NCBI GenBank assembly: GCA_963922205.1
Contig: CAWUHX010000073.1
Location: 1,054,001 to 1,118,000 of the forward strand
Length of the DNA: 64,000 nucleotides
DNA from: Romanomermis culicivorax
Lineage: Eukaryota > Nematoda > Enoplea > Mermithida > Mermithidae
Direction: 5' to 3'
A program made the position numbers and the translations under genes. Below are positions 41,175 through 48,453 of the stretch, piece after piece. Numbering within the stretch: the first letter of the stretch is position 1; the number at the start of each line of letters is the position of its first letter. The notes under the pieces were generated by a model. The model was given only the letters and a program-made list of their open reading frames with translations. It was not told the origin of the DNA and searched no databases.

Positions 41175-41855
41175 AAATACCCGCATTTGCCGTGGACTCT
41201 GCTCAACGAGCCATCGCATGTCGAAGCGCTCACGGCCGCCGACGTCGTGCTTGCAGCACCCGTCTCAATGCGACTCTTACGACCCGACGTCGCCCGACGG
41301 GAACTCGAGTTCATTGCCAATGGGACTATCACCATCTCGCCCGTCGAGAAGTTCTTATTGGACGGGGAGCCATCCTCGCCTTCAGTCGATGCCGTCTGCC
41401 GAGCAGTCGAACAGGCCAGTCGGATCCTCCTGCCTGCTGCGGCCGCTACATCACCGGCAGCAGCGCCACCTGTTGCCGCGACATCGCCAACGAAAATGGA
41501 CATTACTGCTTCCTCGCCCCCGGCCAAGGAACCCGCAAATGATCCTACACCGCGGGCAACAGCCCAACATACATCGTCGGCAACAGCCCAAGTCAAATCG
41601 CCGGCACCAGCCCAAACGACATCTCCGACCGCTGCGACCAAGTCGCCCGTCGTCGAACACATGGCCGTCGACGAGACCTTACGTCCGGTTAACGAAGATG
41701 TCAGCATCGTTGAGGAATCCCCGTTCCCAACGGCAGTCGCCCCACGGTCACCAAAAATCGGTATCCTCCGTGAAATCCACCCATGCGGTGGATTGGTCCT
41801 CGATTTCCCCGGCCAGGAACCAATCTCGTCCGACAGCGACGAAGAAGAAATCTGA
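41175..41855 (+). CDS. Gag-tail or linker ORF of the young gypsy element
   Basis: The frame is open from the BEL insertion point to TGA at 41,853-41,855. It starts with a compact segment (LPWTLL, LLRPDVARRELEF) and continues as an Ala/Pro/Thr-rich low-complexity tract with short repeats (ATAQ, KSPAPAQ). It ends in an acidic tail (SSDSDEEE). Upstream it lines up in frame with the segment open from 30,117. The env-pol ORF overlaps it in the +1 frame, so a +1 frameshift or a spliced message is needed to pass from this product to the glycoprotein. No enzymatic domain was recognised. Confidence 0.6.
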   Translation, partial: KYPHLPWTLLNEPSHVEALTAADVVLAAPVSMRLLRPDVARRELEFIANGTITISPVEKFLLDGEPSSPSVDAVCRAVEQASRILLPAAAATSPAAAPPVAATSPTKMDITASSPPAKEPANDPTPRATAQHTSSATAQVKSPAPAQTTSPTAATKSPVVEHMAVDETLRPVNEDVSIVEESPFPTAVAPRSPKIGILREIHPCGGLVLDFPGQEPISSDSDEEEI

Positions 41856-47800: not shown

Positions 47801-48453
47801 TAGCCACACGGCTACATATGTATGTTCATCAAGGACATACCGATTGGGATGAACACCTACCATACGCTGTGTTTGCCGTCAATATCAGCATGAATGAGTC
47901 AACAGGGTACTCGCCCTTTGAACTCATGTACGGTCGCACACCCATGCTCCCTGTTGATGCCGCGCTCTCATTCAACCCTCCGGCCCATATCATTAATGTT
48001 TCCTCATATGATATGGAGGTCAAACGTCATTTCACGAATGCGTTAACCTTAATCCAGAGTCGGATTGAGAAAGCACAGGAAGCCTACTCACGGTCGTACG
48101 ACCGGAAGGCACATGATGTCTCGTACAAAGTAGGGGATCAGGTGCTCAAACTGCGCACCTCCAGCAAACGTGGACTCACTCCTAAATTGCTGCCCATCTA
48201 CGATGGGCCCTACCTTGTAACAAGTGTGGCATATCCCAATGTCACACTTCGTCTCGAGATGGATCAGGAAGACACTGTACATGTCAACCAGCTTCGACTT
48301 TACGTGTCCCCTGAACAACCAAGTGAAGCAGAGGATACACCTCCCACTTCACAGGCAACAGGTTCAGCACCCTTATTGTATCCCTCAATAAGCCGGGACT
48401 TTACACCGAATCTGATTGACCCACACCTTGATGCAGAGGTCCCCGACCCGTAA
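41218..48453 (+). CDS. pol: Glycoprotein-protease-protease-RT-RNase H-integrase polyprotein
   Basis: This uninterrupted frame has 2,411 codons. Its first ~200 residues overlap the linker ORF in another frame and may not be translated; a later ATG at 41,698 lies closer to the signal segment. Residues 229-252 form a signal peptide. A cysteine-rich, N-glycosylation-rich ectodomain runs to a membrane anchor at about 776-806. Retropepsin 1 has DTG at 866-868 and LILGLD ending near 956. An Arg/Ser-rich linker precedes retropepsin 2, with DTG at 1198-1200 and LVLG at 1265-1268. RT has LDQANAYW (D1557) and YLDD at 1619-1622. RNase H carries D1768. The H2C2 finger (CQRCDLCQRNK) and integrase core D2093, D2153, E2189 show D-59-D-35-E spacing. 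All catalytic residues are present. I suspect, without proof, a class III-like or chuvirus-like glycoprotein. Confidence 0.9.
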   Translation: MSKRSRPPTSCLQHPSQCDSYDPTSPDGNSSSLPMGLSPSRPSRSSYWTGSHPRLQSMPSAEQSNRPVGSSCLLRPLHHRQQRHLLPRHRQRKWTLLLPRPRPRNPQMILHRGQQPNIHRRQQPKSNRRHQPKRHLRPLRPSRPSSNTWPSTRPYVRLTKMSASLRNPRSQRQSPHGHQKSVSSVKSTHAVDWSSISPARNQSRPTATKKKSDTAPQARFVKLSEHLQITFVQLFLTIKLTLVASLFLGVSLSAPAAQYQFCGLSRSGHPLELPQRVECKPPQSSWSPRRMNVTVYVPSSDPITATAWKCTLRSRKVCTNTGFFGSRGITADVITTQHLAPAACTLAHRTKMFGSQKLVGVRPGFYSTNQTLEVMYEWCCSDVCKTVTNLFIEEGQVASWDGTTALSTLGDVGGCSPTAGQCTTLDGVIVWPAKNFTARCHYHPKGNYTASMSGNHVIIDDLQVALKIPGNSRVFQLCPELHSTTVRMDQGLLLRIHGRYNLTQNLFRVATDSCPDPVNAKLNYLAQQIKESEINGFRFTWLELCSHAQCYLDLTWQLLRFDPTLGAQAFLQRNDLTAEFTGDALTIWPCQKVNATYVYHSYQVGNVCYKYLPVQVGGTIYFATPGGPDLIKSSPIVPCHHHFTGILRNRSGWFTESGAVHVSHIPLELFWKQRFNITHFEAPALFHDQLAMTPSNFAFFKQYVYKTEQIEAVLNRLVNFTAGLSLQPDAIYQAFAGVGTDIKASLEGVSLAANHVITGQQHTLAQGLHAVLSGPVQLIFNILITLTVLIGAGYLAYLGVSYYLSYRLRSKQVRFVSRFSPLGLYRKVQRWIGFHYLQNDVPSQLDRITPCFFVLLDTKETPAFLDTGCPRTIISQRLHKALAKESPKAVMAFQQHHDFNPLMSINGKAVHTILSGPYEIMLPGNRQPNTRIDIHLHVCKTTSPFWAPVDLILGLDFLEQFKNIMFDYQRNVCPLDAVELPLLLTTPEIDQIDPWWENTRALLRNSHRSGSRSRSRASSISRPHSRASSVASSRGSTRGSRASSRRASRHLSTLHGSGCPRPPPGTSPVTLEKGRYREPSDSDAPASPVPNAPPLSDTEIESLGATQSPKDHSDHVLTVQDESTLLNDPEPSVGYALVGLLRRTGLPIPKRSGKTKHDSSATTPDSGHVVTAFYPNDIQTPHIRVLLNNWVEAKALVDTGAVFSLLDHKLAAQLPNLSLSPTRARPIAANGSPIPLLGAAYITVTVADVSERIQVQIQENCSAELVLGTNFLGRFNCVSLNWEKSFLQFKESRIPCDGLIHSPPSARGALPLKDLVILEPRSLTRFTVPVPPIYTNVPEVAFFPKHLTGSQRHVYFAGSVSTVTNGHIPLQVVNPSTHSVVLYPHTSIGHVQMHSEPSRESPVDSDTVLDRQWVEANAVISPDISPRDWAALLDLLVAYTDLYALDEKDTGSTDLVQHEISTGDARPVRCFPYQSSPKEKDLIMQEVKALQEKGIIQPSTSPWATNTVLVCKKNGSHRMCVDFRGLNEVTKKDVYPLPRIDDILDTLKGMKYFTTLDQANAYWSIPIAEADKEKTAFNTPIRLYEFNYLPFGLCNAPGTFQRLMDLLLTGIQWRTVLTYLDDILVFGNSHTQMLERLADVFARLRRGGMKLRLSKCKFSHSEVEYLGYRISQSGLEPDQAKLAAVQNLPIPRNAKDIKSFLGLVSYYRRFIPGCARLSEPLTKLLRKETTFQWSKPQQEAFDELRRLLTNPPILRHPDFSKSFILQTDASISGIGAVLSQLDEHGYDHPVAYASRGLTAAEKNYSITELETLAVVHFVKHFRPYLFQHEVVVQTDHTAVKAVLEKPNPSARIARWGLALAEFKLTIQPRKGQSNGNADALSRLPDPNSLTGQSIDDTPLYRPEGHVMMITDGAQHLARSRTLTDGVQHLARSSNSAPITVGVERPVRSESYAEISVGAQHPDLFAAQLKDLELADIIRSLKPLGDQNDVGGYHLLDNVLQKWTGESNKIVIPRSMVTTIIRAHHDDILAGHFGAKRTARLIARRYHWPSLSRDVKSFCQRCDLCQRNKPARQKTTATLKPITITGPFHRVGVDCMGPMTTSEAGNRFIVVFIDYFTKWVEAFATPDITAHTIARLFVTQIVCQHGAPQILQSDCGTDFTSKLMTEITVICATKKIHSTAYHPMTNGEVERANQTLATRLHMYVHQGHTDWDEHLPYAVFAVNISMNESTGYSPFELMYGRTPMLPVDAALSFNPPAHIINVSSYDMEVKRHFTNALTLIQSRIEKAQEAYSRSYDRKAHDVSYKVGDQVLKLRTSSKRGLTPKLLPIYDGPYLVTSVAYPNVTLRLEMDQEDTVHVNQLRLYVSPEQPSEAEDTPPTSQATGSAPLLYPSISRDFTPNLIDPHLDAEVPDP

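What the first reader, a model, noticed from the sequence alone, without database searches (positions are those of the whole stretch)
41218..48453. Glycoprotein encoded upstream of protease-RT-integrase in one frame
Seen directly: a 2,411-codon open frame has a signal peptide, a Cys-rich ectodomain and a membrane anchor (about residues 229-806). These precede protease, RT with YLDD, RNase H and a D-59-D-35-E integrase. In retroviruses and env-carrying LTR elements the glycoprotein gene normally lies 3' of pol. Decayed copies A (5.8-11.1 kb) and B (2.6-0.4 kb) keep the same order, so it is an inherited family trait. With an anchor in the middle, the enzymes would lie on the cytoplasmic side of a membrane-bound precursor.
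Basis: partly seen in the sequence, partly recalled or inferred. Interest (0 to 1): 0.88.

Follow-up and report, generated by a model that had tools for sequence, protein, structure and literature searches.

The report
Entry glycoprotein lodged inside retrotransposon polyprotein

Summary
[quoted passage not shown] It is the 3' part of a roughly 16-kb Ty3/gypsy LTR element (23275-50418; 1,447-bp LTRs, 7 differences; TSD CTAC) interrupted by a nested BEL/Pao element (30228-41169). Uninterrupted copies have Gag upstream, in the same unbroken frame in 3 of 10.

The glycoprotein is a class III fusion protein: Pfam Monjiviricetes_fusion in 9 of 9 relatives, gB-like predicted fold. The order glycoprotein-PR-RT recurs in 12 of 12 further loci classified here (six DNA groups; 12 of 68 scored) and in 8 of 8 glycoprotein-bearing database polyproteins. 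Glycoprotein, RT and integrase show purifying selection.

New points: the gag/glycoprotein junction overlaps another, selected reading frame (X), so "one frame" does not settle how the glycoprotein is translated; and the nested BEL/Pao element carries a phlebovirus-type glycoprotein in the usual 3' place.

Captured glycoproteins in LTR elements are known. I found no paper putting one upstream of the protease, but the closest (Chary & Hayashi 2025) could not be read. Verdict: new variant of a known kind. The membrane-threaded precursor is inferred, not shown.

The parts
23271..23274 (.). 4-bp target site duplication CTAC (5' copy)
   Evidence: read directly
23275..24721 (+). 5' LTR of the glycoprotein-bearing Ty3/gypsy element, TG..CA
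   Evidence: 99.5% to 48972-50418 over 1,447 bp; 7 differences
24722..28366 (+). long leader; 7 of 10 other copies have no sense frame of 120 or more codons there, and no codon periodicity is seen
28367..30227 (+). gag (Ty3-like capsid, Cys/His knuckle region) as far as the nested insertion; not fully open in this copy
   Evidence: tblastn with the gag of another copy, 96%; PF19259 Ty3_capsid on that other gag; ORF list
30223..30227 (.). 5-bp target site duplication CCAAG of the nested element (other copy 41170-41174)
   Evidence: read directly
30228..41169 (-). nested BEL/Pao element with LTRs 30228-30679 and 40718-41169; absent from 10 of 10 other copies fetched
   Evidence: Peptidase_A17, DUF1759, DUF1758, RVT_1
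32545..33510 (-). Phlebovirus_G2 fusion domain of the nested element, 3' of its integrase (usual order)
   Evidence: PF07245 E 5e-93 at residues 1130-1451 of ORF 31957-36897
41175..41855 (+). reading frame X (3' part), overlapping the gag/glycoprotein junction, ends TGA just before the signal peptide
   Evidence: variation sits at X third positions, informative sites 15 of 20, p 1.7e-4
41218..48453 (+). main open frame, 2,411 codons: 5'-truncated gag-glycoprotein-pol
41902..41973 (+). internal signal peptide, residues 229-252
   Evidence: hydropathy; cleavage site not tested
41974..43518 (+). glycoprotein ectodomain, class III fold; 18 Cys and 9 N-glycosylation sequons counted over residues 253-806
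   Evidence: PF24664 and BDV_G; fold; counts
43519..43620 (+). membrane anchor followed by basic residues, about residues 768-801
43789..44127 (+). first retropepsin-like stretch (LDTG at residue 866), weak
   Evidence: PF13975 E 0.011, below cut-off; alignment to the P0009 domains; fold model uninformative
44773..45039 (+). aspartic protease (VDTG at residue 1198)
   Evidence: PF13975; DTG positions
45751..46227 (+). reverse transcriptase (YLDD at residue 1619)
46414..46803 (+). RNase H
47248..48147 (+). integrase (H2C2 and rve core)
48972..50418 (+). 3' LTR; CTAC duplication follows at 50419-50422
6246..11022 (+). decayed relative A, same order glycoprotein-PR-RT-RH-IN; gag-like piece at 4498-4893
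   Evidence: tblastn
363..2694 (-). decayed relative B, glycoprotein then PR, cut by the window end
   Evidence: tblastn

Best explanation
This is a young, multicopy Ty3/gypsy LTR retroelement of a lineage that holds a class III (chu/borna/gB-like) fusion glycoprotein between Gag and protease, as the N-terminal part of the Pol chain. Most likely mode of action: ribosomes make Gag in the cytosol. On a share of transcripts they continue, in the same frame or through recoding near frame X, into an internal signal peptide that sends the chain into the ER. The ectodomain is translocated and folds, the anchor stops transfer, and PR-RT-RH-IN emerge back in the cytosol. Host signal peptidase would sever Gag from the glycoprotein, and the element's protease would free the enzymes from the cytoplasmic tail. 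The glycoprotein then serves as envelope for cell-to-cell or germline entry. Shown here: domain order, class III assignment, recurrence across families, selection. Inferred: co-translational threading, cleavages, entry function.
Against: No transcript, ribosome or protein data. At the junction the main frame is not the selected one, and its openness given X's residues has probability 0.028 by synonymous shuffling, only moderate evidence that it is kept open. In 3 of 10 copies the main frame has a stop inside the junction. Single copies of three other families carry an in-frame stop between gag region and glycoprotein. P0003 and P0103 carry the glycoprotein outside the main clade (one-clade test p 0.0501), and P0103's match is under the Pfam cut-off. 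The fold model has middling confidence (pLDDT 66.9; residues 416-524 under 50); Foldseek TM-scores to gB are only 0.2-0.4 with large rmsd. The window's own PF24664 match covers only profile positions 311-449 of 653.
Confidence: 0.6

Rival explanations
1. The gene order is as described, but the glycoprotein(-Pol) chain starts separately from Gag: by a spliced message, reinitiation after X or after a gag stop, or stop-codon recoding. The apparent single frame of gag and glycoprotein is then incidental.
For: Frame X, not the main frame, is selected at the junction and ends in TGA shortly before the signal peptide. In L030 two long ORFs, gag-like (Ty3_capsid only E 0.022) and glycoprotein-pol, share a frame with a single stop between. 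L031 has zinc knuckles in the glycoprotein's frame up to a stop about 130 nt before it; L029 has a stop about 310 nt before it.
Against: Six of 8 database polyproteins (P0002, P0003, P0009, P0032, P0075, P0103) run from gag to integrase in one frame; the other two, P0024 and P0095, begin in or at the glycoprotein and do not tell. In the window family the nearest in-frame Met before the signal peptide is at residue 161, about 70 residues upstream. L029-L031 are single copies and may be decayed.
Confidence: 0.3
2. The glycoprotein no longer serves entry. It is kept because its signal and anchor tether the Pol precursor to membranes, or simply hitchhikes.
For: P0017, inside the glycoprotein clade, keeps two hydrophobic segments between gag and PR but has no recognisable ectodomain. 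Glycoprotein constraint is weaker than RT's (47 of 101 against 29 of 44 changes at third positions).
Against: Relatives at 34-44% identity keep invariant cysteines and the family match, and the glycoprotein shows third-position excess even at shared sites (13 of 20, p 0.0037).
Confidence: 0.15
3. Coincidence or artefact: an endogenous viral glycoprotein fragment inserted into one element, or a misassembly.
For: Jingchuvirales glycoprotein fragments often lie near LTR elements (PMC10084718, passages).
Against: Eleven copies at different places, the window's included, share it, as do six other DNA groups here and 8 database polyproteins. The window ORF has no stop.
Confidence: 0.02

Closest known systems
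Envelope-carrying gypsy elements / errantiviruses of metazoans (Chary & Hayashi 2025, doi 10.7554/eLife.108449; not held, known here only from passages of PMC13172572 and PMC12859917)
   Same: Ty3/gypsy pol with a captured envelope; PMC13172572 says that gypsy elements with type III fusion glycoproteins exist.
   Different: ICTV's Metaviridae profile (PMC7879559, passages) places Env downstream of the integrase domain; here it precedes the protease. I could not check whether Chary & Hayashi report other orders.
Anakin, BEL/Pao elements with a chuvirus glycoprotein in mosquitoes (PMC7642597, passages)
   Same: Captured glycoprotein of the chuvirus/Monjiviricetes kind inside an LTR element.
   Different: Anakin's pol is BEL/Pao; here pol and capsid are Ty3/gypsy. 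The same group found no clear capture by Gypsy elements (PMC10084718, passages). Anakin's domain order was not given in the passages that I saw.
Tas, Roo, Cer7 type BEL/Pao elements with Env downstream of the polyprotein (PMC7642597, passages)
   Same: The nested element of this window has a phlebovirus-type glycoprotein 3' of integrase, as described for Tas.
   Different: The finding's own element has the opposite order and another fusion-protein class.
Troyka LTR retroelements (PMC12440569, abstract and passages)
   Same: Virus-like retroelements of animals, mostly with a single Gag-Pol chain.
   Different: [quoted passage not shown] its LTR ends are CG..CG and TSDs 3 bp, against TG..CA and 4 bp here.
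Flavivirus-type polyproteins (recalled)
   Same: Order capsid, signal, glycoprotein, then protease and polymerase in one membrane-threaded chain.
   Different: Analogy of layout only; no homology of polymerase or glycoprotein is claimed.

Membership tests
Ty3/gypsy LTR retroelement (Metaviridae) | PR-RT-RNase H-IN order with H2C2/rve integrase | tested here: met
   rve is 30.1 bits against a cut-off of 32.6
Ty3/gypsy LTR retroelement (Metaviridae) | Ty3-like capsid in Gag | tested here: met
   PF19259 31.2 bits, cut-off 29.1, on the gag of copy L009
Ty3/gypsy LTR retroelement (Metaviridae) | TG..CA LTRs with 4-6 bp duplication | tested here: met
   4-bp TSD in 6 of 11 copies: the window, L011/12, L015/16, L021/22, L023/24, L027/28; none seen in the other 5, which have 11-49 LTR differences and may be recombinants
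Errantivirus-like organisation | env, where present, downstream of the integrase domain | tested here: not met
   glycoprotein upstream of PR in the window, A, B, 12 of 12 loci, and upstream of PR/RT in 8 of 8 proteins
Class III viral fusion glycoprotein | sequence family membership (PF24664) | tested here: met
   49.8 bits against cut-off 27; 9 of 9 relatives match at E 0.01 or better
Class III viral fusion glycoprotein | gB/G-like fold | tested here: met
   [not shown]
Class III viral fusion glycoprotein | type I topology: cleaved signal and C-terminal anchor | tested here: inconclusive
   hydropathy only
Class III viral fusion glycoprotein | membrane-fusion activity | not testable with these tools
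   none
Anakin (BEL/Pao + chuvirus glycoprotein) | BEL/Pao-type pol (Peptidase_A17, DUF1758/1759) | tested here: not met
   no such match in P0001 at E 1; they occur in the nested element

The most novel reading that the evidence does not exclude
A clade of Ty3/gypsy retroelements has adopted a flavivirus-like polyprotein logic. Shell protein, class III entry protein, protease, polymerase and integrase are made as one chain threaded through the ER membrane, with host signal peptidase doing the first Gag/Pol cut and a recoded overlapping frame (X) setting the ratio of Gag-X to the full chain. Envelope and enzymes are therefore made in fixed stoichiometry and loaded on membranes together, unlike the separately expressed Env of retroviruses.
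Probability: 0.3. Interest if true: 0.88.

Novelty: new variant of a known kind. Interest (0 to 1): 0.72.

Why it matters
Capture of entry proteins is how retrotransposons are thought to become retroviruses, and in the described cases Env sits 3' and (recalled) is usually spliced. A lineage with the entry protein in front of the protease means that the step was taken by another route, with other constraints on stoichiometry, maturation and assembly. It gives concrete predictions: signal-peptidase cleavage between Gag and glycoprotein, and membrane-bound Pol. The window also holds both designs at once, a BEL/Pao element with a phlebovirus-type 3' glycoprotein nested in a gypsy element with a class III mid-polyprotein one, which makes a good natural comparison. 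Element annotators that look for env 3' of pol could miss this lineage (inference).

Tried and rejected
Tried without result. The viral-contig scan with the glycoprotein found no relative; phage records, none. Rfam and tRNA scans of L009 were empty. No X-XXY-YYZ slippery heptamer was found in the gag frame of L009 from gag to the junction. Pfam finds nothing in X. The fold model of the first protease-like stretch was useless (pLDDT 36). A single-sequence PDB search of the glycoprotein gave only E 0.2 to an agglutinin receptor; the gB matches need the profile or the fold. Glycoprotein-only search: one free-standing relative (P0004). So the polyprotein form is not only a length filter, although the searches admit only long proteins, and one search lists 120 of 2,188 hits, many of them Cordylochernes proteins holding several elements. 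Host not identified (the cytochrome oxidase search did not complete); BEL/Pao suggests an animal (recalled).

Considered and rejected: misassembly or a chance EVE (many copies and families); Anakin membership (wrong pol); "one unbroken gag-glycoprotein protein proven" (X).

Against my reading: stops in the junction in 3 of 10 copies; P0003 and P0103 outside the clade; the 12 loci are 12 of 68 scored of 2,320 candidates. The first eight were picked for differing profile ranges or open-frame sizes and the last four chosen by eye; six of the 12 belong to one DNA group and two to another. Nine of the 12 stretches (L032-L040) end before or within integrase, so they show what follows the glycoprotein, not what lies at the 3' end of the element. 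No row was dropped from the 12. From the first RT tree 9 of 123 proteins were left out for short coverage; the second tree used 32 rows that I picked.

Papers: only abstracts or passages were read, apart from listings; PMC3118150 had no passage on envelopes beyond its references; the one "upstream of pol" passage in PMC5408684 (listed, read) concerns an esterase of non-LTR elements. "Not in print" rests on ten searches of one open-access library; Chary & Hayashi 2025 was not held and may describe this.
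Full report
1. What is there. It is not a complete gene. The window belongs to an unnamed 359-Mb genome (G000:C73). Comparison with other copies shows that the ORF lies in an LTR element spanning 23275-50418, with 1,447-bp LTRs differing at 7 sites and a CTAC duplication. That element is interrupted at 30228-41169 by a second LTR element on the other strand, flanked by CCAAG. Ten of 10 other copies that I fetched run straight from window position 30227 to 41170, so the insertion is private to this copy among those seen. 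The glycoprotein DNA finds 40 scored places, the window's included, at 98-100% (40 of 1,099 first-look candidates were scored).

2. Uninterrupted copies. Gag (Ty3-like capsid) lies upstream. In 3 of 10 copies the frame runs from the gag Met through to the end of pol, 3,046 codons reckoned from coordinates; the other 7 have stops or shifts. LTR pairs of 11 copies, the window's included, differ at 2 to 49 of about 1,440 sites; 4-bp duplications are seen in 6 of the 11, and the 5 without one have 11 to 49 differences and may be recombinants. The family is young.

4. The order is inherited. A search of this genome with PF24664 scored 68 of 2,320 candidates, 68 of 68 over the cut-off, with matches in 0 of 14 control genomes. 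I fetched 12 of the 68. In 12 of 12 the order is glycoprotein, PR, RT. By DNA they form six groups, none matching the window family: one of six loci (90-96%), one of two (99%) and four single loci. Window copies A and B agree. In databases the closest polymerases by RT-RNase H are P0009, P0017, P0024, P0032, P0095 and P0075 (56-69%); 5 of these 6 carry the glycoprotein. With P0002 and P0003 and P0103 (weak), eight proteins carry it, and in 8 of 8 it precedes PR/RT (P0003's protease shows by Pfam below cut-off; P0024 and P0095 begin in or at the glycoprotein). Six of the 8 hold gag upstream in the same frame: capsid or gag models and/or CCHC knuckles in P0002, P0003, P0009, P0032, P0075, P0103. 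The RT-RH-IN tree puts seven of the nine glycoprotein rows plus P0017 in one clade (99/98). P0003 and P0103 fall outside, and a single clade of all is neither shown nor clearly rejected (p 0.0501). P0017 keeps two hydrophobic segments between gag and PR but no detectable ectodomain. None of 14 rows of a neighbouring group without PF24664 has such a pair; one, P0107, has a single N-terminal segment, and some are 5'-short.

5. Selection. Among the window and up to 12 copies (10 over the whole stretch, two over its first half), variable sites by codon position are 30, 24, 47 in the glycoprotein (p 0.004), 9, 6, 29 in RT, 3, 8, 21 in the main PR, 12, 13, 31 in IN; gag, among the window and 10 copies, 37, 35, 67. 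The glycoprotein is under purifying selection, more weakly than RT.

6. Frame X, the unexpected part. Across the gag/glycoprotein junction the main-frame counts are 29, 50, 26, and at shared sites 2, 15, 3. The excess is at main-frame position 2, the third position of another frame (p 1.7e-4 for 15 of 20; main-frame third position p 0.98). That frame (X, about 260 codons, open in 9 of 10 copies) starts just after a stop in gag's 3' part, runs in -1 relative to gag and ends in TGA shortly before the signal peptide. In single copies of three other families here a stop lies in the glycoprotein's frame about 130 to 330 nt before it; in L031 zinc knuckles lie in that frame upstream of the stop, in L030 the upstream ORF is only weakly gag-like, and in L029 gag is in another frame. 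I take the gag/glycoprotein boundary to be this lineage's Gag/Pol recoding point, with the glycoprotein at the head of Pol; the recoding mechanism is open.

7. Mechanism. Signal, ectodomain, anchor and a following basic stretch would put Gag and the enzymes in the cytosol and the ectodomain in the ER lumen. Signal peptidase could cut Gag off; the element's protease could free the enzymes. All of this is inference from layout. The nearest layout that I know is the flavivirus polyprotein (recalled, analogy only).

8. Known background. [quoted passage not shown] BEL/Pao elements captured phlebovirus, herpesvirus and chuvirus glycoproteins; for Roo, Tas and Cer7 Env is said to lie downstream of the polyprotein (PMC7642597, passages). 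No clear Gypsy capture of jingchuviral glycoproteins was found by that group (PMC10084718, passages). Type III glycoproteins in gypsy elements and the wide spread of envelope-carrying gypsy elements in animals are mentioned in PMC13172572 (passages), the latter also in PMC12859917 (passages), citing Chary & Hayashi 2025, which I could not open. So capture is known, class III in gypsy is known, and the position before the protease is what I did not find (ten searches listed in Tried and rejected).

9. The nested element is a control. Its ORFs carry BEL/Pao marks and a Phlebovirus_G2 domain (E 5e-93) after the integrase. The same methods thus recover the usual order where it exists.

10. Limits.

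Noticed in passing
window 30228-41169 (-): BEL/Pao element with a phlebovirus-type (class II, recalled) glycoprotein 3' of integrase, nested inside the gypsy element with a class III one.
   Followed up: partly
window 43789-45039; P0009 1352-1879: More than one retropepsin-like domain in tandem: a weak first copy with DTG in the window family, and three in P0009, the middle one without DTG/DSG.
   Followed up: partly
window 56377-64000 (-): Another gypsy-like element (RNase H/integrase at 64000-61949, cut by the window end) followed 3' by ORFs; 59900-61129 looks by eye like a DEDDy (RNase D-type) exonuclease, a type reported as ORF3 in bdelloid LTR elements (PMC5408684, passages), but Pfam and PDB sequence searches gave nothing.
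   Followed up: partly
P0002 residues 500-555; P0103 residues 3328-3405: An RRM domain between gag and glycoprotein in P0002, and a PHAX RNA-binding domain downstream of integrase in P0103: extra RNA-binding modules in the same kind of element.
   Followed up: no
L030:2495-2497: A weakly gag-like ORF and the glycoprotein-pol ORF in the same frame, separated by a single TAA; L029 and L031 also have a stop shortly before the glycoprotein. Readthrough site or decay cannot be told from single copies.
   Followed up: partly
window 14367-17999 (-): Further pol copy, 65-77% to the main ORF over RT and RNase H, without a recognisable glycoprotein upstream; probably truncated.
   Followed up: no
window 24722-28366: 3.6-kb leader between 5' LTR and gag with no codon periodicity among copies; function unknown.
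   Followed up: no
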